Below, in pieces: positions 27,453 through 37,873 of a stretch of 64,000 nucleotides of DNA (the stretch's first letter is position 1; each line of letters starts with the position of its first letter). Below the pieces are notes generated by a model. The model was not told the origin of the DNA. It saw only the letters and a program-made list of their open reading frames with translations, and ran no database searches. The stretch comes from Paenibacillus daejeonensis DSM 15491 (GTDB lineage: Bacteria; Bacillota; Bacilli; Paenibacillales; Paenibacillaceae), in the NCBI RefSeq assembly GCF_000378385.1, contig NZ_KB899668.1, forward strand, positions 112,370-176,369. Reading direction: 5' to 3'. Both the position numbers and the translations under genes were made by a program.

Positions 27453-30400
27453 ATGTTAAAAAAAGCACTCTCAGTTCTAATGGCCGTGGCGCTGCTCCTG
27501 ACGATCGCGCCGGTCTATCCCGCGCAGGTAGAAGCGAATACGTCGCGGAATTTTGTATTTAACAATGAACAATACACTTCCGGCACACCGAGAATCACAA
27601 CCAATGAACGCGTCACGCTAAACGGTACAATCAACAATGTCATTGGCAGTACGATTACGTACAGTGTATACCAGATCTCTCTCACCAATGGCCAGGAGAC
27701 GATACTGAACCGCAATGAAAATCAAACCACCAATATTTCACTCAGCGGCAGCAGTATTACCATCCTGAATGTCCAACTGTTCCCCGGTCTTAACAAGATT
27801 ACCTTCAAGGGAGCACAAGGCAGCGCTGAGGTGACGGATTCAATCTATATTGAATACCGCAACAGTCCAACGCTTTTTAATTTGATGGCAAATCTGGACG
27901 GTCTGCAATACGAAATTCAAGAGCATGGTACAACAGTGGTGCATTCTACACCATCACAAGGCAGAGCCAGTGCAGATATCAGCATTAGCGGTAAAGCGCC
28001 AAACGCAGAGCGTGTAACGGTTATTGTTAATAATCGAAGCTATACGTACGCAGTTAACAGTATCAATGACTGGAACTTTGTTGCGGCGCCGGTGAATATC
28101 GTCAAAGGGAAGAATACGGTGACGATTCGCGTCTTCAACAATAATCAGACTGTAGAAACGACAAGAGATATTGCTTTCTATAACGGAACCGTGACTTTCT
28201 TTGACATGAATCTCAAGCATGATAACGGTTCAGCAAGTCTGGAGAATAATCCGAACTTTTCTGTTCCTAATACTAATCTGACGCTAGAAGGCAAGGTTAT
28301 AGTTCCACTGCTCTACGATCAGGCCACCAATGCACACACGCCAACGATCCCGAATGCCGGATTGCAGTACCGTCTGGGGAACACTGGCGCGTTTACGGCA
28401 ATTCCAGGCACGATCCAGATGGACCCAGTAGGAACTGTTCTCAGACCCAATGACCGGTTTATGACGCTTACATATGCCATTCCATTATCAGGAGCAAACT
28501 TGACGTTTGATACCCGGCATACGATTCAGTTCCAGGGGATGAACCTGGTTAAGGTGCCGGCTGGAACCGACCTGTCGGATGTATATTCATTTACACTGCG
28601 TAATAGTGGATTGGCTTACATCGAAGATATTAACTATTTGCCGGGGTTCACTGGCACGACAACTAACGGTCAACTGGAAACCATGCAGGGCTCTGATATT
28701 GAGAATGCCGATATTTTCTCGCTGCCCATGGGTATTGAGGTATTGATCGGGAACTATCAGAACTGGACCACTCCGCCGGCTAATCTGGTCACCATTCAAA
28801 GCGTTCGTGATGCGGCCGGTACGGTTCACACCGTGGGGAGTAACAGCGGTGTTTTGAACGATCCGACTCATAAATTTAGTTATATTCAGCGTGAGGTTGG
28901 ATACGTAACGCAACGAAATATCGATGGGGTGGAGCAGCGTTTCCTGCGCGTGTTCCTGGAGGTGCGCAAGCTGCCGTCTGCTGGACAGCAGACCCTTAAC
29001 ATCCGACTCAATAATAGCAATGCCTCGACAGACGTTTATGCAGCACCAATTACCCTGCTCTACGGCCCGTATGCGAATTTTACTCGTCTACTGGATACCA
29101 TGTCTGTAAGTTACGACACGACACTGCAATCCGGACCGGGCCAGCAATTCCTGATTCAAAACCAGTTGGACCGCTTCCGTGGAGAACTGCTGAATATTGC
29201 CAACCCGAATGATATCGTCTATGAATCGTCTGCAGACGGACCGCAAACGGTATTCATGTATATTAATAACACGCACATCCTGCTGAGGCAGGAAGAAACA
29301 ACCAACCGGGCCAAGTTCATCATCAAAGATGCTGCTGAAGAGTCTAAAGCGTTCAACGCGCTCTTCAAATCCGGTGACAATACTATTCGATTCGTGTTCC
29401 GCACGGCAAGAAACAACTATGAACGCAGTATGAAGCTGACGCTTGTTCCGACCAATCTGCCGCAGATTCCGGCGGAGAACACGGATGGTGTATATCCATA
29501 TAGTATTGGGCTGCAAAGGCCAACACCGAACGATCCCAAGTTCCCGCTCTCCGGAAATGTGTTTACAACAAAAGAAGCAGAGATGAACGTCTACGGTACC
29601 TTTGATTTTATTGATTTGGGAACAAGTGTGCAGGCTGTAATCAACAAGCTGGACACGATGAATGCGGATCGCAAAAATTATATGATTCGCATTTCCACTG
29701 CTGGTGAACCGGACATTAACTGGTCTCTGGAGAATTCATTTGTAACCATTTCTGCCAATGAATCTGAACATAATCAGGTCGTCGGCGGTTCGGTCACGGT
29801 ACCGGGCCTGACAGTGCAGTATGACTTGGCCAAACAGAGCTTCTCTTTCATTCTGCCCAACCAACAGCTGCCTATCGACGGTAGTCCGAAGGTTTACACA
29901 ATCACGGTATTCAACAGCGGAGAGACGGGCCCTCGGGCGACATATCGTTTGGAGATTAATCCGACGACAATCCCGTATACGGTGCTGGCCCCGATCCTGG
30001 AGAAACGAATCATGAATCAGAACTTTGTTGAAGTGGTGATTGCTTCACCAGGTGCCGAGAGCATTAATATTAACAAAGTGGAAGCCCGCAAGATCACTTA
30101 CCTCGATTACAGCCGACTAGAGGATGGACAGCCACGACTCATTCCAGCCTTCAGTGCGCTTGTTACAGATCTTAGAGGCGGAAGGGATACCCGGATTGAC
30201 CTGATTATCCGTAGGGGCAATGATGAGATTAAGGATTATTTCAACGTGAAATATGTGCCGGAGTCGATCCCGGGTCATCAGATTATGGAGACGATGAAAA
30301 ACTCCCATAAGCTGTTTGATAATCAATTGACGTTGAGCTTTGATCGGAATACGAATTTAATCCGCACCGATTATAATGTGCCGGATAATCTTAAAGGCCA

Positions 30401-31550
30401 AGTTTATAATGGTCATAAATTATTGTTTGCTATAGCAAACCCTGTAGATGGCGTTGTAGACCGTCATGATTTTCAATCCGTACCCGCCAATTATGACCTG
30501 GACTTGTCACTTGGAAAAGTACTGTTCGGCGCTAGCTTTCCGCAGCGGTATATCAAGTCTAGTCCTGTCTATTGGATCGATCCAGGCCAAGCGGATGACG
30601 CGACCACTCCGGGTGTGTATGATCCAATTGATGCAGGTGTGGACCCCTATCCGTTCTCTAGGGAGCAAGGGGTAACCCAGCGTTATTATTTCTCTCGTGC
30701 GAACGACCGGGAGCTGGTTCCGTCCAAACGCGGTTCGTTGACCCTCGCTTACGATCCGTCGATCCGTCAGGGTGCAGGCACGATGGTTACCGTATTCCGT
30801 TTTGACGCTTTCACGCAGCAATGGGAGAATATTGGTGGCGTTGTTGACGACCGTAAGAATACCATTACTGTGCCATTCGATAGATTTGGATACTATACGG
30901 TCGCCAAATTGAGTTATGGCTTCAATGACATTACTGATCATCCTTATGCAAGAGAAGCGATGGAGGCCATCTTCACCAAAGGTGTGATGAACGCGATTGA
31001 TCCTAGCGGCATGTTTGGTGGCGATCAGTATGTGACCCGTGCCGAGTTTGCCCGCATGATCGTACGTGCACTTGAGATGCCGCTCAACTATGATGGGGCC
31101 AATCACTTTGATGATGTGCCGAATATGGGCAACGCGATTAATATGAATGCGATTTGGGATTATCGCTATATTGAAACCGCGGCTCGTTCAGGTTTTACAA
31201 GAGGGACGCGTCCGCGCGCATTCGACCCAGAGTCCCCTATCGTCCGTCAGGACGCAGCGGTCATGCTTGCCAAGGCGCTGAACATGAAACTAGAGACGGA
31301 TGCATCTAAGGTTCGTTCAGGCTTGCAGAAGGCGTTCAGAGACGAGGGTGCGATGGACTTCTATGCGGCGCCGTCTATTCTGGCGATCCAGAAGAAAGCA
31401 TTCATCCAGGGTGCACCTGTAGATATTAATGATCCAGCTCGGGGTAATGTGTTCCAACCGAAGGCGAGGCTGTTGCGCAGTGATGCTGCCATTATTATCG
31501 CTAAGGTTATGGCGGATGTGAAAAAGCTGCCGAAGTTGTATACTCAGTAG
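27453..31550 (+). CDS. Very large secreted SLH-anchored surface protein
   Basis: 1365 aa. The signal peptide is about 1-30 (VYPAQVEA). The bulk (about 35-1050) is beta-rich with repeated short modules such as ERVTLNGTI, APNAERVTVIVNNRSYTYAV and NTVTIRVFNNNQTVE, resembling Ig-like or PKD-type folds without a clear family. An IPVIY-like link leads to three C-terminal SLH domains from about 1157: the first keeps VTRAEFARMI, while the second (VRQDAAVML) and third (LRSDAAIII) have diverged from TRAE. Being next to tagO and before the S-layer gene, it is probably a second wall-anchored layer or adhesin component. RBS TAGGAGG. Cargo function unknown. Confidence 0.88.
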   Translation: MLKKALSVLMAVALLLTIAPVYPAQVEANTSRNFVFNNEQYTSGTPRITTNERVTLNGTINNVIGSTITYSVYQISLTNGQETILNRNENQTTNISLSGSSITILNVQLFPGLNKITFKGAQGSAEVTDSIYIEYRNSPTLFNLMANLDGLQYEIQEHGTTVVHSTPSQGRASADISISGKAPNAERVTVIVNNRSYTYAVNSINDWNFVAAPVNIVKGKNTVTIRVFNNNQTVETTRDIAFYNGTVTFFDMNLKHDNGSASLENNPNFSVPNTNLTLEGKVIVPLLYDQATNAHTPTIPNAGLQYRLGNTGAFTAIPGTIQMDPVGTVLRPNDRFMTLTYAIPLSGANLTFDTRHTIQFQGMNLVKVPAGTDLSDVYSFTLRNSGLAYIEDINYLPGFTGTTTNGQLETMQGSDIENADIFSLPMGIEVLIGNYQNWTTPPANLVTIQSVRDAAGTVHTVGSNSGVLNDPTHKFSYIQREVGYVTQRNIDGVEQRFLRVFLEVRKLPSAGQQTLNIRLNNSNASTDVYAAPITLLYGPYANFTRLLDTMSVSYDTTLQSGPGQQFLIQNQLDRFRGELLNIANPNDIVYESSADGPQTVFMYINNTHILLRQEETTNRAKFIIKDAAEESKAFNALFKSGDNTIRFVFRTARNNYERSMKLTLVPTNLPQIPAENTDGVYPYSIGLQRPTPNDPKFPLSGNVFTTKEAEMNVYGTFDFIDLGTSVQAVINKLDTMNADRKNYMIRISTAGEPDINWSLENSFVTISANESEHNQVVGGSVTVPGLTVQYDLAKQSFSFILPNQQLPIDGSPKVYTITVFNSGETGPRATYRLEINPTTIPYTVLAPILEKRIMNQNFVEVVIASPGAESININKVEARKITYLDYSRLEDGQPRLIPAFSALVTDLRGGRDTRIDLIIRRGNDEIKDYFNVKYVPESIPGHQIMETMKNSHKLFDNQLTLSFDRNTNLIRTDYNVPDNLKGQVYNGHKLLFAIANPVDGVVDRHDFQSVPANYDLDLSLGKVLFGASFPQRYIKSSPVYWIDPGQADDATTPGVYDPIDAGVDPYPFSREQGVTQRYYFSRANDRELVPSKRGSLTLAYDPSIRQGAGTMVTVFRFDAFTQQWENIGGVVDDRKNTITVPFDRFGYYTVAKLSYGFNDITDHPYAREAMEAIFTKGVMNAIDPSGMFGGDQYVTRAEFARMIVRALEMPLNYDGANHFDDVPNMGNAINMNAIWDYRYIETAARSGFTRGTRPRAFDPESPIVRQDAAVMLAKALNMKLETDASKVRSGLQKAFRDEGAMDFYAAPSILAIQKKAFIQGAPVDINDPARGNVFQPKARLLRSDAAIIIAKVMADVKKLPKLYTQ

Positions 31551-31567
31551 TCTATAGTAAGGTATGG

Positions 31568-31601
31568 GGCGGCTATTCCAATAGGATTAGCCGCCTTGTT
31601 G
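31568..31601 (+). terminator. Terminator of the 1365-aa SLH protein gene
   Basis: GGCGGCTA and TAGCCGCC pair fully around a 12-nt loop, followed by TTGTT. Confidence 0.8.
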
Positions 31602-31757
31602 CATTCTATTACCAAAATGCGGTATAATCACAAAACCGTGTCTGAATCTGAGAATTTCCAAATGAAGTTCTTTTCATAGATTTAGAGGTTCTCAGAATTC
31701 TCTGCGACCTTGCGGAGATGACTGGCACATATTTTTTTTGTTGGTAAATGTTTCTCA

Positions 31758-31786
31758 ATGACGAAACGCGGGTAACAAGCTATACT
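31758..31786 (+). promoter_or_regulatory. S-layer promoter candidate P1
   Basis: ATGACG (31758-31763), 17 bp, TATACT (31781-31786). Sigma-A type. Confidence 0.5.
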
Positions 31787-31988
31787 AGGTTTCGACAACA
31801 TACATAATGTGAAGTCATTACCAACGCTAGCGAAACCCACCAAGTGTTACATAGTTTTGAACAGTGAGAATGCCATTAAAAAAAATTCAAAGTTTTTTTC
31901 TCGGAATCGCAACTTTTCTGAATCCCCTGCGTTTATATACATGGAGTCGCACAGAGCGGCCCATAACGCAAGGTTTCTGAAAATGTGC

Positions 31989-32017
31989 TTTACGGTAGGA
32001 TGTGCCCATTGTATAAT
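31989..32017 (+). promoter_or_regulatory. S-layer promoter candidate P2 (strongest)
   Basis: TTTACG (31989-31994), exactly 17 bp and a perfect TATAAT (32012-32017). Confidence 0.75.
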
Positions 32018-32120
32018 GTTCTAGTGGCATGCGATTCTACCATATTTTTCTACGCTAGTTTACAAGTTTCTGCGACATGATCTTACATAATGGTTAGGAA
32101 CATGCCACGCAGACATTCTT

Positions 32121-32126
32121 TATAAT
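32121..32126 (+). promoter_or_regulatory. S-layer promoter candidate P3 (-10 only)
   Basis: A perfect TATAAT, but no convincing -35 hexamer at 16-18 bp. It would start just before the upstream ribosome site. Confidence 0.3.
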
Positions 32127-32141
32127 ATCGCGCTCAACTCT

Positions 32142-32165
32142 GGGAAGGGGGTGAATCGGCCGATG
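32142..32165 (+). promoter_or_regulatory. Upstream ribosome site and in-frame alternative start of the S-layer gene
   Basis: GGGAAGGGGGTGA (32142-32154) precedes ATG 32163 by about 9 bp. The frame runs without a stop into the S-layer gene, adding MRETSHHIARQDSQHPKHFR and six more residues. A GTG at 32151 is also in frame. Tandem start sites have been described for the Bacillus brevis cell-wall protein gene. Confidence 0.55.
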
Positions 32166-32240
32166 AGGGAAACGAGCCATCACATTGCAAGACAAGACTC
32201 TCAACATCCGAAACATTTTAGAGGAGATGAACAAAAGGTT

Positions 32241-35200
32241 ATGAAAAAAAGTTTATCCTTGCTTTTGGCCATCGCTATGGTGTTCTCCATGTTTGCAGCC
32301 GTAGCGTCTGCAGCTGAAACCCCACAAGAACGTTTTGACGTTCTGAAAGAAGCTGGCATCTTTGAAGGTTATCCAGATGGATCTGCTGGTCTGGAGCGCC
32401 AAATGACTCGTGCAGAATTCTCCAAAGTTCTTGCACTGCTGACTGACGCACCTTCTAACCCTTCTGCTAATACTTACACTGATGTGCCTGCAACTCACTG
32501 GGCTTCCGAGTTTATCGGAGCTGTTACAGCTGCTGGCCTGATGAACGGCGTTGGACTGAACAAGTTCGACCCTAACGGTACTGTTACTGTAGAGCAAGTC
32601 GCTGCTACCCTGGTTCGTGCACTGGGTCTCGACGAAGCTTCCGGTAACCTGACTGGTACTTACAGCCCTTGGGCACAAGGCTACATTGTAGCTGCTCAAC
32701 AAGCTGGCCTGCCAATCGAAGGTCCTAACTACAAAGCAAACGCTCTGCGTTCTGTGCTTGTAGACAATGCTTACACTGTATGGGTACTGTCTTCCGTACA
32801 AGTAACTGCAACTGAAGTAATCGACGAGAACACAGTCGAAGTTACTTTCTCCGATGGCGAGAAAGTTGAAGTTGAGCTGACAACTGCACTGGTTCCTAAC
32901 CAAGCTACTAACGTAACTGTTAAATACCTGGGCGTTGACTTCGTAGTTTCTGTAACTCTGGAGCAAGGTACTGTTGAAGCCGCTGCTATCGGCGCTAACA
33001 AGATCGAAGTTAAATTCAACCGTGCTGTAAACCCTTCTGATGTTACAGTTAACCTGCGTCGCGCAAACAACACTGTTAACATTCAAGAAAGAGTATGGGC
33101 TTCGGACAACAGATCCGTTGTTCTGCAAACTAGCTCCAAATTCGTTGCTGGTACTTATACTGTTTCCGTAACTGGAATCGAGTCTGAAGCAATCGAGCGT
33201 GAACTGACACTCGAAGCTGAAAAAGTAGCTTCCGTAGACATCCTGTCTGACGTTGCATCGCTGTCCGGTCCTGCCGGCAACACTGGTGCAAGCGTATCGG
33301 TTGGTTACCAAGTACTTAACCAATACGGTGAGGACATTTCTGCTACTACTCAATTGAACGCTAATACTACTATCGGTACAATTGCTACTAACCCTGTTTC
33401 CGGTAGAACATTGACAATCAATGCGTCTTCTGCAAATGCTCCTTTCCAAATTGGTCAAACGTTGGCTGTTACATTGATTCACGTTCCTACTTCCACTGTT
33501 GAAACAGCAACTCTGACTGTTTCTGCAGAAGCTAGAGTATCGCAAATCAGCGTAGAAAGACTGGCTGGTCCAGCTAACACTACTCTGACTGCGGATACTG
33601 CTAACCCTAGCGATTTCTACCTGGTAATCAATGCAAAAGATCAATACGGTGCAGCTGTAACTGATGTTACTAAATTGAAAGAGCAAGTTCTGGTTAGTGT
33701 TTCTAACACTGCAGTAGCATCTGTAAATGGCTACAGCAATAACCAAGCTACTTTCACAACTGCTAACATCAATGGCGTAAACACTCCTGTTCTGCGTCTG
33801 AGCACGCCTAACACTAACGGTCGTCTGACTGCTGGTAACTCTGTTGTTACTCTGATTGCTACTGGTCCTGGCGCACAAACTGCTAGCTTCACAATTGAAG
33901 TTGGTCAAGGTCTGCGTTCTGACACTGTAACATTCACGCCTCCAGGTAGCGTTGCTGCTGGTGAAGTGGTTCGCGTACCAGTTGTCGTAACTGACCTTGC
34001 TGGTAACGAAATTACTAACACTACTGTTCTGAACAGCGTTAGCAACGATAACTACATCGGCGTACGTGTAACTCCTACACCTAGCTATACTGGTTTCAAC
34101 GGTACTTTCGTTCGTGAGAACAACCAAACATACTACCGTTTCACTGCACCAACTACGACAGGCGTTCTTAACCTGACTGCACTGTCCAGCACGTTCAAAG
34201 CAACAAACCTGCAAATCAACATTCAAGACGCAGCTGTACCTAATGTAATCACTGGTATTAAAGACGTTAACCGCGTGATCTTCGATGGTCAAACGGTAAC
34301 TCTGGACACTGGTAAACTGGTTATTGAAGATCAATATGGTCGTGTGATCAACAGCCCAGCATTGAACGCTGCTGATACTACTGGAAACTACAAAGTAGTT
34401 GTAACTGGCGGTAACGGCGATTACATCGAACGTACTGGTAATACAATTGCTTCTGGTTCTTCTGTAACTCTTGAGGCATCTGGACGTGGTTCTGAAACGT
34501 TGACTTTCGCTGTTGAAAGATACAACGGAACTGCTTGGGTTGCTGTACCAGGTAGCGCAACAACTGTTCAATTCCGTTCCGTAACTCAAGCTGATCTGGG
34601 TAACTACGGTGTAGATCCAGTTGGAAGAGTGTTTACTCAAGCAGCTGCTGGAGTAACTCAATACAACAAAACACTGAACGTGTTTGGTCTTACTTCTGAC
34701 CAACAAAAAGTAACTCTGCCTTCTGATCTGTACAATGCGGTTGCACAAAACAGTAATGTAACAATCAGTGATTCTGGCGCACTCACTATCACTGGTGCAG
34801 CAACTGGAACAACTGGTGGTATCTACCCTAACGATTCTACAAATGAAGTTACAACAAGTGTGCGTGTAACTATCAACGCTACTGGTCAAGCTATCGATGC
34901 TGAATTGATTGCTTCCCGTGTAGCTCCAGCTGTTGAAACACTTGCTGCTGACGGTACTGTAACAATTGGTGCTGGTAACTTCAGCTTCGGTTCGATTGCT
35001 GACAAAGTAAGAGCAACTGATCAATACGGTGTAAGAGCTACAGTTAATGCTGATGGAATTACATTCCCTGGTCAAGCAACTGTACGTGCTCTGATTAACA
35101 TCACTGATCTGGTTAACGCTGGTGGATCTACTACTCCAGTAATCACAGGCAATGGTACTACCAATGCTACTATTGCTGGTCTGGAGTCTGGCGATTCCTT

Positions 35201-35258
35201 CACAGTAACTCTGACAATCAACGGTAAAACATCTACAACTCGCGTTAACGTTCAGTAA
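32241..35258 (+). CDS. Major S-layer protein with N-terminal SLH domains
   Basis: 1005 aa from ATG 32241. The signal peptide is 1-24 (cleavage after VASA). Three SLH domains follow (about 27-70, 82-130, 140-185); the first has MTRAEFSKVLALL, the others are degenerate. The remaining 800 residues are Thr/Val/Ala/Asn-rich, beta-structured and cysteine-free, as in self-assembling S-layer proteins. Codon use is extreme (GCT, ACT, GTT/GTA, CTG, AAC) and unlike its GC-richer neighbours, the mark of very high expression. Codons TTA, CTA and TCA are absent after Leu5. The SD here is AGGAGATGA at long spacing. A second in-frame ATG at 32163 with a better SD would add 26 residues before the signal peptide. 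Anchoring should need CsaB. Confidence 0.95.
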   Translation: MKKSLSLLLAIAMVFSMFAAVASAAETPQERFDVLKEAGIFEGYPDGSAGLERQMTRAEFSKVLALLTDAPSNPSANTYTDVPATHWASEFIGAVTAAGLMNGVGLNKFDPNGTVTVEQVAATLVRALGLDEASGNLTGTYSPWAQGYIVAAQQAGLPIEGPNYKANALRSVLVDNAYTVWVLSSVQVTATEVIDENTVEVTFSDGEKVEVELTTALVPNQATNVTVKYLGVDFVVSVTLEQGTVEAAAIGANKIEVKFNRAVNPSDVTVNLRRANNTVNIQERVWASDNRSVVLQTSSKFVAGTYTVSVTGIESEAIERELTLEAEKVASVDILSDVASLSGPAGNTGASVSVGYQVLNQYGEDISATTQLNANTTIGTIATNPVSGRTLTINASSANAPFQIGQTLAVTLIHVPTSTVETATLTVSAEARVSQISVERLAGPANTTLTADTANPSDFYLVINAKDQYGAAVTDVTKLKEQVLVSVSNTAVASVNGYSNNQATFTTANINGVNTPVLRLSTPNTNGRLTAGNSVVTLIATGPGAQTASFTIEVGQGLRSDTVTFTPPGSVAAGEVVRVPVVVTDLAGNEITNTTVLNSVSNDNYIGVRVTPTPSYTGFNGTFVRENNQTYYRFTAPTTTGVLNLTALSSTFKATNLQINIQDAAVPNVITGIKDVNRVIFDGQTVTLDTGKLVIEDQYGRVINSPALNAADTTGNYKVVVTGGNGDYIERTGNTIASGSSVTLEASGRGSETLTFAVERYNGTAWVAVPGSATTVQFRSVTQADLGNYGVDPVGRVFTQAAAGVTQYNKTLNVFGLTSDQQKVTLPSDLYNAVAQNSNVTISDSGALTITGAATGTTGGIYPNDSTNEVTTSVRVTINATGQAIDAELIASRVAPAVETLAADGTVTIGAGNFSFGSIADKVRATDQYGVRATVNADGITFPGQATVRALINITDLVNAGGSTTPVITGNGTTNATIAGLESGDSFTVTLTINGKTSTTRVNVQ

Positions 35259-35270
35259 TCTGTTTGACAA

Positions 35271-35296: not shown

Positions 35297-35362
35297 TTTG
35301 CTTCGAAACAAAGTGCAGGCCTGCAACGTCTAATCAGGTAGAATATTGCAGGAGGAATGTAT

Positions 35363-37873
35363 GTGAGAAAACGTTGGGTGAAACCCGCCGTCATTGGGTT
35401 GACGGTCTTGACAATGTTGGCGTCGCCGCTGTCGGTGTTGCCACAGCCAGTCGCGGAGGCGAGTATGGCGCAGTTGTCCAAGCAGTGGGTGCGTTTGGGC
35501 TCGTCTGGTGTGTTGAATGTGCGGGATGCGCAGTTCTTGATGCAAGAGAAGGGTAAAGTATTGGCGGTTACGGTGGGGATCACCAATAATAGCTCGCGTT
35601 CACTGAGTCTGTTGGATTATTGGGTTCGCGTGAAGAGTAAATCTGGTAAAACCTTTAAGGCTTCGTTGCTCGAAGCGGACAAGGCCAAGACGATGGTGCC
35701 ACCGAACTCCTCACTCTACTTAACCTATTACGCGGTTGTGGATCTGCAAACCAATCTTTCCGATCTTCTATTCGACGTTATCGAATGGGATTTTGACCAG
35801 CCCAATTATGAGAAACGATTGGGACGCATTAGCGTGCCATCTGGCACCACTGGCAAAACGCCTGCTTTTCAGGCGAATGTCATGCTATATCAGAACTCCA
35901 AGTTACGGGGCGCTCTCAAGTCTTACATAGCCACACGCGATAACACTAACACGTATGTAACGCTTCAATACTTGATTGAAAACGTTGGCTTTCGTTCAGC
36001 AGATCTTTCCGGGTTGAAATTTTATGCACAAACCGATGGTATGTCAGTCTATGGGGTGAATTTTGCTGCGTCGAAGGAAACTATCGAGCCGAAAGAGCGT
36101 AAAATTGTCACGCTACTCGCCACCATTCCAAACAGTGTCGCCACCAAACCCTTGTCTCTTATCGCAGCTACTTCGGATGAAGCCAGCAAAGTGGAGCTTC
36201 CGCTAGGTGTCTTCCAACTGCCTGCGATCAAGACAACAACGCCGGCGGCAGCTGGCAGCAATCGTCTCATCTATCTGAATGGTCAGTTGATTTCGACCAA
36301 AACGGCGGGTGCTACTGTTGAAAAGACAGAGGACGGTCAGAAACAGACGGTTGAGCTTGCCTTTCATCTGCAGAACACTGATAACCGTGCCGCGTCCTAT
36401 GCCAATTTGGACTTTGTCATTGAGACCACTGGAGGGGCTCAGTATCCTTTGACTTTTACAAAGGAAGAGCAGACTATGCTGCTCCCTAAGATTGAAAAAA
36501 AACTCACACTCACTGGCGAAATTCCTGCCAATCTTAAGATAGAAGACGCCATCGTGGTGGTTCGTTCAGCTCCAAGCGAAGAAACCCGCAAAGCCACCTT
36601 GGGCACCTACAAGATATCTCGTACAGTTGTTGTTCCAGAAAATAATTCGGGTACCATCTACCAGAACAAAGACTATCGGCTTCATATCGATTCCGTGAAT
36701 CGAATCGCCACCGAAGGCAATGATCTTTTGGTTGCGGACTTGGTGATTACGAACCCAACCAGCGAATCGAAGGCGATTCCTGTGTATCAGGGACATTTCC
36801 TGATTAACGGCGTTAAAACCCCGACTCAGTCATTCATCCCACTGGACCAGTCGGTTACGATTGCTCCTGGCGGTACGTATAATGTGGCCGTGTATTCAGA
36901 GATTCCTTATACCTCTGTAGTAAATGACTTGTCATTTGTTCTGACTGAGAAGGTAGAAGACAAGCCAGACAAGACGTTGTTCCGTTTTGACAAACAAATG
37001 ATTCGGACCCTCGTGCCTCAAAAACAAGATCGAGTGTACGAGATTAAGAACGTCGGTCGTCAAGCCAGTGTGAAGCTGCAGAAATCTGCTATTCATCGTG
37101 GTGCGCAGGCTAATGAGCAGTTCTACTATGGTGAGTTTGAAGTGACCAATCATGAGATTCGGCTTGCAGATCCTACTAAATTGCAGGGCTATCTAAAAGA
37201 TAACGCCGGCTTGATCGTACCGATCAGCTTTGTACATGACACGGCTCGCATCACGCCAAAAGCAAAAGCGCTCTATGCGGCTGTGGCTAAAATCCCGGCT
37301 ACCTTTAACAAAGACAAGTTTGCTCTCTATTTGGGTCAATCGATTGTTACGGAAGCAGGTGGAGAAGGGTCAGCCGCGAAAACACTGATGGTCAAGCCAG
37401 TTGCTTACGAGATTAGCCCAACGCTTACTTATAATGAAACGTTAAAAAATATCACGTTTGCTGGAAACCTATTGAATTTCAGAGAGCTTCAAGCTAATCT
37501 GAAAGTAACGGAAGGCGAGAATGCGAACTTTACAGGGTTTGATTTTAAAATCAAATACGATTATACCCGTGATGCTAACTATGAGACGGCTTATAAGGAT
37601 CAGAAGCTAGTCTTTGAAATCGTTGATGCCGGGGAAGGTAAAGTTACCTATAATAAAGAGATTCGTATTTCGCCATCGGATGACGGCAATGCCCCACTCT
37701 TGAAAGAGGGCCAAGAGGTTTCCTTGGATTTGGTGTTTGAGGACCCAGCCATTATGAGCAAGATCAGACGCTTCCGTGAATATCAGTTCAATGTTTACAC
37801 GGTCGTGGACAATCATAAGCTGCTCATTGCCTCCAAAGAGTTGAAGTGGCAAAATCTTGAGAAAATTCAGTAA
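35363..37873 (+). CDS. Large exported protein of unknown function, S-layer locus
   Basis: 836 aa from GTG 35363, 7 bp after GGAGG; an ATG at 35357 in the same frame is only 1 bp from the ribosome site. Signal peptide about 1-34 (PVAEA). The mature part is a repetitive beta-sandwich protein: six or seven segments share a pattern of VLAVTVGITNNSSRSLSLLD or LVADLVITNPTSESKAIPVY type, then a loop and a polar strand, typical of DUF4352-like or NEAT-like surface folds, though I cannot assign a family. No SLH domain, lipobox or LPXTG. Codon use is intermediate. Twenty-six bases separate it from the next exported protein, so the two form a unit behind the S-layer gene. Confidence 0.8.
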   Translation: MRKRWVKPAVIGLTVLTMLASPLSVLPQPVAEASMAQLSKQWVRLGSSGVLNVRDAQFLMQEKGKVLAVTVGITNNSSRSLSLLDYWVRVKSKSGKTFKASLLEADKAKTMVPPNSSLYLTYYAVVDLQTNLSDLLFDVIEWDFDQPNYEKRLGRISVPSGTTGKTPAFQANVMLYQNSKLRGALKSYIATRDNTNTYVTLQYLIENVGFRSADLSGLKFYAQTDGMSVYGVNFAASKETIEPKERKIVTLLATIPNSVATKPLSLIAATSDEASKVELPLGVFQLPAIKTTTPAAAGSNRLIYLNGQLISTKTAGATVEKTEDGQKQTVELAFHLQNTDNRAASYANLDFVIETTGGAQYPLTFTKEEQTMLLPKIEKKLTLTGEIPANLKIEDAIVVVRSAPSEETRKATLGTYKISRTVVVPENNSGTIYQNKDYRLHIDSVNRIATEGNDLLVADLVITNPTSESKAIPVYQGHFLINGVKTPTQSFIPLDQSVTIAPGGTYNVAVYSEIPYTSVVNDLSFVLTEKVEDKPDKTLFRFDKQMIRTLVPQKQDRVYEIKNVGRQASVKLQKSAIHRGAQANEQFYYGEFEVTNHEIRLADPTKLQGYLKDNAGLIVPISFVHDTARITPKAKALYAAVAKIPATFNKDKFALYLGQSIVTEAGGEGSAAKTLMVKPVAYEISPTLTYNETLKNITFAGNLLNFRELQANLKVTEGENANFTGFDFKIKYDYTRDANYETAYKDQKLVFEIVDAGEGKVTYNKEIRISPSDDGNAPLLKEGQEVSLDLVFEDPAIMSKIRRFREYQFNVYTVVDNHKLLIASKELKWQNLEKIQ

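What the first reader, a model, noticed from the sequence alone, without database searches (positions are those of the whole stretch)
32142..32241. Two in-frame start sites for the S-layer gene, the upstream one with the better ribosome site
ATG 32163 has GGGAAGGGGGTGA at about 9 bp, while the canonical signal-peptide start (32241) depends on AGGAGATGA at long spacing. The frame between them is open, so a product with 26 extra, His/Gln/Arg-rich residues before the signal peptide is possible. Tandem starts are on record for the Bacillus brevis cell-wall protein gene. If both are used, translation through the first could keep the second site open, or the longer form could be secreted differently.
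Basis: partly seen in the sequence, partly recalled or inferred. Interest (0 to 1): 0.75.

Follow-up and report, generated by a model that had tools for sequence, protein, structure and literature searches.

The report
Frame-locked tandem starts before S-layer gene
The S-layer gene of this Paenibacillus-like bacterium has two in-frame start sites, and relatives in many bacterial families keep both sites and the reading frame between them, so the double start looks like a selected device for making a very abundant coat protein.

Summary
ATG 32163 follows GGGAAGGGGGTGA (8-nt gap) and lies 26 open codons before the signal-peptide ATG 32241. By predicted pairing to 16S rRNA it has the strongest ribosome site of 6088 start codons scanned in the window.

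It is not local. A leader model matches 391 of 394 genomes of the family and 145 of 149 drawn from the order (82 of 86 outside the family). Of 212 leader loci examined (partly redundant), 197 have start 1 in frame with start 2 and no stop; 4 are out of frame, 1 has a stop, 6 lack start 1, 4 are unclear or unrelated. On a tree, leader length changed at least 52 times, frame 3 times; the adjacent spacer changed length 30 times, frame 29 times. Leader residues vary (pN/pS 0.82) but stay polar in 156 of 159.

Sequences around start 1 also keep weak pairing that could hold its ribosome site in a hairpin loop; marginal in the window.

Likely both starts are used: the strong first site loads ribosomes, which read productively through the second. 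Usage was not measured. Tandem starts are recalled from Bacillus brevis; the breadth and frame lock are what this adds.

The parts
32132..32140 (+). 5' arm of a possible hairpin: GCTC (32132-32135) and CTC (32138-32140)
   Evidence: GCTC somewhere upstream together with GAGC early in the leader in 138 of 166 distinct loci; 93.4% of cells paired in 80 aligned leaders against 29-53% when slid; not the predicted minimum-energy fold in the window
32142..32154 (+). SD1, extended Shine-Dalgarno GGGAAGGGGGTGA
   Evidence: -21.8 kcal/mol with the 16S tail, best of 6088 start codons in the window
32163..32165 (+). start codon 1 (ATG)
   Evidence: ATG in 148 and TTG in 11 of 159 distinct leaders; first candidate start after SD1, chosen without regard to frame
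32163..32240 (+). 26-codon in-frame leader (N-terminal extension), polar
   Evidence: no stop in 159 distinct leaders, the other two frames closed in 153 and 151; more polar than own shuffles in 156 of 159; 52 length changes but 3 frame changes on the tree
32165..32177 (+). 3' arm of the possible hairpin inside the leader: GAG (32165-32167) and GAGC (32174-32177)
   Evidence: GAGC at this place in 131 of 159 distinct leaders
32220..32226 (+). SD2, AGAGGAG, 14 nt before start 2; most relatives have GGAGG 13 nt before it
   Evidence: GGA GGA codons in 158 and 155 of 159; 13-nt gap in 117 of 117 loci with GGAGG, of 120
32241..35258 (+). S-layer protein gene from the signal-peptide start (start 2), 1005 aa
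   Evidence: Pfam SLH 1.2e-11

Best explanation
The region is a conserved double-initiation leader of the main S-layer gene. Shown by sequence comparison: SD1 with start 1, the frame from start 1 to start 2, a polar extension and SD2 are kept over many families. Inferred: both starts are used. SD1, the strongest ribosome site around, captures ribosomes early and may shield the 5' end. Those ribosomes initiate at 32163 and read through 32241 in frame, so each still makes S-layer precursor, with a longer polar n-region before an ordinary signal peptide that signal peptidase removes. A second stream starts at 32241. The frame lock exists because a ribosome starting at SD1 in the wrong frame would be wasted or would run over start 2. 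The residues matter mainly by being polar, so that export is not disturbed.
For: Leader model hits 391 of 394 family genomes, and 371 of the 371 of high quality; 82 of 86 order genomes outside the family; 85 of 299 drawn from the class, 27 of them of the own family and many weak; a single strong hit in the own genome. 197 of 212 loci in frame and open. Tree: at least 52 length changes against 3 frame changes; adjacent spacer (156 of 172 rows) 30 against 29; 49 of 52 against 1/3 gives p about 3e-20 if changes are independent. Polarity and 57.5% A at codon position 2. Synonymously fixed GGA GGA codons and a constant gap point to use of SD2. The genomes that break the frame, L013 (= L194) and L174, both shift so that the leader ORF stops at TGA overlapping ATG 2.
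Against: No expression data. Selection on residues is weak (pN/pS 0.82 in the true frame, 0.82 in frame +1, 1.30 in frame +2). Codon 4 ends in G in 152 of 159 and codon 5 is AGC in 131 whatever the residues, an RNA-level constraint. Family f37 (L094, L215-L217) and L218 (f23) keep SD2 and start 2 without start 1; f34 (L091) keeps pairing around SD1 without start 1. L065 has a stop at codon 4. Detection carries bias: loci came from a model of 27 such leaders; SD1 had to match 8 (retry 7) of 10 letters; start 2 had to be an ATG with a short G-rich string upstream, so the constancy of ATG 2 is not evidence and that of SD2 is only partly so.
Confidence: 0.6

Rival explanations
1. Only start 2 is used. 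SD1 is a non-initiating ribosome-binding stabiliser of the mRNA (STAB-SD type) or a standby site, perhaps shown in a hairpin loop, and the open frame is incidental.
For: SD1 strength; the STAB-SD of cry3A binds 30S, blocks RNase J1 and does not start translation (PMC4113751, passages); pairing around SD1 kept in f34, which has no start 1; f37 has no start 1.
Against: A start codon 7 or 8 nt after SD1 in 161 of 175 loci, frame lock, no stops in 159 distinct leaders, polar codon bias.
Confidence: 0.15
2. Only start 1 is used; the precursor has a long signal peptide and 'start 2' is an internal Met.
For: SD1 stronger than SD2 in 120 of 120 distinct loci (SD1 was chosen by its letters); the SD2 gap of 13 nt is long.
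Against: The GGA GGA codons are nearly fixed at synonymous positions; f37 and f34 keep start 2 without start 1.
Confidence: 0.08
3. The extension is an export-targeting signal that sends part of the precursor to a special site or at a special rate, as YSIRK or extended signal peptides do (recalled).
For: Polar, mostly net positive extension (mean +2.8, range -1 to +8) kept before different signal peptides; an MRxxS-like start is common.
Against: The middle is nearly free in sequence and length (22-32 codons); MRxxS is partly explained by the RNA-level G-AGC constraint.
Confidence: 0.12

Closest known systems
Tandem translation starts of the Bacillus brevis (Brevibacillus) middle-wall-protein gene (recalled, Adachi et al. 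1990; not seen; listings showed no title or abstract on it)
   Same: Two in-frame starts before a wall/S-layer gene with a signal peptide; the leader model also finds f32, whose leader typically ends RGGEPKV before MKKVVNSVLASALAL
   Different: f32 uses TTG as start 1 with LQDSG; the window uses ATG with MRETS; the arms around SD1 differ. Naming f32 as Brevibacillus rests on recall
STAB-SD of cry3A mRNA (PMC4113751, passages seen)
   Same: Strong SD-like sequence upstream of the working start, able to bind the 16S tail
   Different: STAB-SD does not direct initiation; here a start codon at 8 nt is frame-locked to the gene
Translational coupling by leader ORFs, and ribosome standby sites (recalled)
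   Same: A first ribosome site just upstream of the main one; in L013 and L174 the leader ORF stops exactly at start 2
   Different: In nearly all loci the leader is fused in frame instead of ending at the gene

Membership tests
Bacillus brevis type tandem-start leader | two start codons in one open frame, each with an SD | tested here: met
Bacillus brevis type tandem-start leader | precedes a surface-layer / wall protein with a signal peptide | tested here: met
   window protein has an SLH domain; signal peptide read by eye; of 10 downstream proteins of relatives that I chose, 6 have SLH and 4 have no Pfam match over the first ~305 aa
Bacillus brevis type tandem-start leader | sequence homology with the Brevibacillus leader | tested here: inconclusive
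   f32 genomes matched at 3e-7 to 8e-6 with shared RGGE and KV-MKK; f32 is unnamed and its naming rests on recall
Bacillus brevis type tandem-start leader | both starts used in vivo | not testable with these tools
   needs profiling or proteomics
STAB-SD | SD-like site near the mRNA 5' end | not testable with these tools
   transcription start unknown; promoter-like sites found only by consensus, 3 against 1.7 in shuffles
[quoted passage not shown]
   frame lock and polar codons speak for initiation; not measured
described RNA family (Rfam 15) | match over a family's gathering score | tested here: not met
   window 31500-32500: three matches, each far below its family's cut-off

The most novel reading that the evidence does not exclude
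An ancient composite leader, older than some of the S-layer proteins behind it, combines an RNA element (a very strong ribosome site held in a small hairpin loop, with arms that differ together between some lineages) with a frame-locked, sequence-free polar extension of the signal peptide. It stays with the main coat-protein gene even where the protein differs, and lets every ribosome that enters make product: a two-port loading device for the cell's most abundant protein.
Probability: 0.3. Interest if true: 0.8.

Novelty: new variant of a known kind. Interest (0 to 1): 0.62.

Why it matters
S-layer proteins are among the most abundant proteins a cell makes. A translation leader found in practically every genome of a large family, frame-locked through dozens of length changes, would be a natural solution to extreme expression. 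It is directly testable, it may explain disagreement about the start of these genes, and it could inform expression design in Brevibacillus and Paenibacillus hosts.

Tried and rejected
A fold gating start 2: RNAalifold on 27 leaders gave -3.3 kcal/mol with 1 of 15 pairs changed on both sides; the window leader folds less well than most shuffles (193 of 200 fold at least as well). Known Rfam families: none. A mini-ORF in the window (ATG 32227, MNKRL, TGA overlapping ATG 32241): in the 27 leaders only the window and L009 have it, so it is local. A specific leader peptide as the main driver: pN/pS is 0.82 and frame +1 gives the same.

No listed title or abstract described this leader in Paenibacillus; most subscription journals are not held. 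Passages only were seen of PMC9864115, PMC5670726 and PMC4113751; PMC5670726 does not contain the term S-layer.

Rows: one search failed on 27 of 202 loci; one search resolved 20 (19 of them given on the other strand); L060, L077, L079 and L131, and L220 and L223, were read. L065 is not in the 159. L143 was left out. One search was given 80 of the 131 references; 11 f32 went; f28, f34 and f21 loci were in neither. My note overstated the swap test; the report gives the full picture, and I lowered the probability of the novel case from 0.35 to 0.30 for it.

Full report
What is there. The coordinates are right. ATG 32163 has GGGAAGGGGGTGA 8 nt upstream; ATG 32241 has AGAGGAG 14 nt upstream; the 26 codons between are open. 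With the 16S tail the first site scores -21.8 kcal/mol, first of 6088 start codons on both strands of the window; the second scores -11.5, rank 110. The gene encodes a 1005-residue protein with a signal peptide (by eye) and an SLH domain. Named relatives are Paenibacillus, Thermobacillus and Chengkuizengella.

Spread. In the window and the 32 named loci, 33 leaders were anchored, 32 with a distance divisible by three; L035, missed by that pattern, was printed there too and reads 78 nt. A sequence-only model of 27 leaders matched 391 of 394 genomes of the family, the three misses being under 80% complete. Of 149 genomes drawn from the order 145 matched; 63 of the 149 are of the own family, so outside it the count is 82 of 86 (misses G395, G402, G417, G471). 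Of 299 drawn from the class 85 matched at E up to 0.01, 27 of them of the own family, and many of the weakest may be chance. The own genome has one strong match, the next at E 0.055.

Frame. I fetched 150 more stretches and located SD1 and start 1 without reference to frame. Of 202 loci 175 were resolved, 171 in frame; a retry of the other 27 added 20 in frame; six more were read as in frame. In all 197 of 212 loci are in frame and open. Against: L013 and L194 (one genome), L174 and the degenerate L143 are out of frame; L065 has TAG at codon 4; L091, L094 and L215-L218 have no start 1; L219, L221, L222 and L224 are unclear, broken or unrelated. The 191 leaders give 159 distinct sequences of 22-32 codons, none with a stop; frames +1 and +2 are closed in 153 and 151 of 159; shuffled leaders stay open 14% of the time. 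On a quick tree of up to 180 downstream residues (172 rows) leader length changes at least 52 times and frame 3 times. The spacer between SD1 and start 1 (156 of these rows) changes 30 times and its frame 29 times. The spacer is an internal control: indels do occur there.

What is conserved. Residues are hardly conserved (pN/pS 0.82; 0.82 in frame +1 and 1.30 in frame +2, 1301 same-length pairs, start codon and last eight codons left out). The middle is more polar than its shuffles (mean hydropathy -1.73 against -0.77; 156 of 159), with 57.5% A at codon position 2; net charge averages +2.8, range -1 to +8. Before start 2, the codons GGA GGA occur in 158 and 155 of 159, and GGAGG sits 13 nt from ATG 2 in 117 of 117 loci that have it, of 120. 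SD1 is stronger than SD2 in 120 of 120. Bias: SD1 had to match 7-8 of 10 letters, and start 2 had to be an ATG with a short G-rich string upstream, so the constancy of ATG 2 shows nothing and that of SD2 only in part.

RNA level. Codon 4 ends in G in 152 of 159 and codon 5 is AGC in 131, whatever the residue at codon 4. This GAGC faces GCTC upstream of SD1: both present in 138 of 166 distinct loci, GCTC alone in 13, neither in 15, with no chance baseline. On 80 aligned leaders the two helices (4 + 3 pairs) have 93.4% of cells paired against 29-53% for slid versions; dealing partners out anew among sequences barely lowers this (92.6%), since the columns hardly vary. Four pairs changed on both sides against 0.8 in shuffles (0 of 500), but slid versions reach 3 or 4 as well. 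An arm-swap test between lineages gave clearly best cognate pairing for f32 (-18.0 against -5.2 to -10.1) and f21 (-20.4), and best but nearly equalled for f34 (-16.8 against -16.1 with the f21 arm); f34 and f21 are one sequence each. It was not diagonal for Paenibacillales, f28, f29, the mixed 'other class' group or g17/g5b, and the overall gain was small (-10.4 against -9.4). In the window the hairpin is not the predicted fold (z +0.55); z ran from +0.67 to -2.07 in ten relatives of the order, -0.5 to -1.97 in five f32, and -2.6 in f21. I call it probable in some lineages and marginal here.

Interpretation. Frame lock, open frame and polarity argue that start 1 is translated. The SD2 codons, and lineages that keep only start 2, argue that start 2 is used. 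L013 and L174 break the frame independently, and in both the start-1 frame ends in TGA overlapping ATG 2, where leader translation would still finish at start 2; a homopolymer sequencing error is possible in L013. In the degenerate L143 a second ATG, 59 nt before start 2, lies in that same frame (by eye). The simplest mechanism is two-port loading: the very strong SD1 captures ribosomes, and their product is not wasted because the frame runs into the gene. The extension has to be compatible with export, hence polar. Whether SD1 also protects the mRNA as STAB-SD does (PMC4113751, passages) is open; f34 hints at it.

Leader and protein. Among ten downstream proteins of relatives that I chose for diversity, six have SLH and four have no Pfam match in the first ~305 residues, behind the same kind of leader. 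The leader may be older than some of the proteins it serves.

Known or new. Tandem starts before the Bacillus brevis wall-protein gene are recalled, and f32 looks like that case (11 of 11 f32 loci with TTG start 1). New here, as far as the listings could show, are the near-universal spread in this family and order, the quantified frame lock, the constant SD2 gap and the pairing around SD1. Use of either start was not tested.

Noticed in passing
L094, L215, L216, L217 (family f37): They keep the second half of the leader (NSQPKHKRGGETKV in L094, L215 and L217; only GGETKV after a stop in L216) with SD2 and start 2 but no start 1.
   Followed up: partly
L028, L029; G401, G408, G412, G415 (family f9): Chengkuizengella L028 and L029 each hold two leaders, and the f9 genomes carry 3-4 leader matches each; one copy, L143, is degenerate.
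   Followed up: partly
L138, L140, L081, L100: The leader precedes proteins without a Pfam match in the first ~305 residues, so it may outlive replacement of the protein.
   Followed up: partly
window 27453-31550: A 1365-residue SLH protein lies just upstream; in several relatives (L009, L013, L023) a stretch like its C-terminal part lies about 1.1-1.2 kb upstream of the leader, so the order seems conserved.
   Followed up: no
window 35357-37873: An 838-residue protein with a weak DUF4352 match follows the S-layer gene.
   Followed up: no
window 32253-35270, minus strand: A 1005-codon open frame runs antisense to nearly the whole S-layer gene, probably a by-product of codon usage.
   Followed up: no
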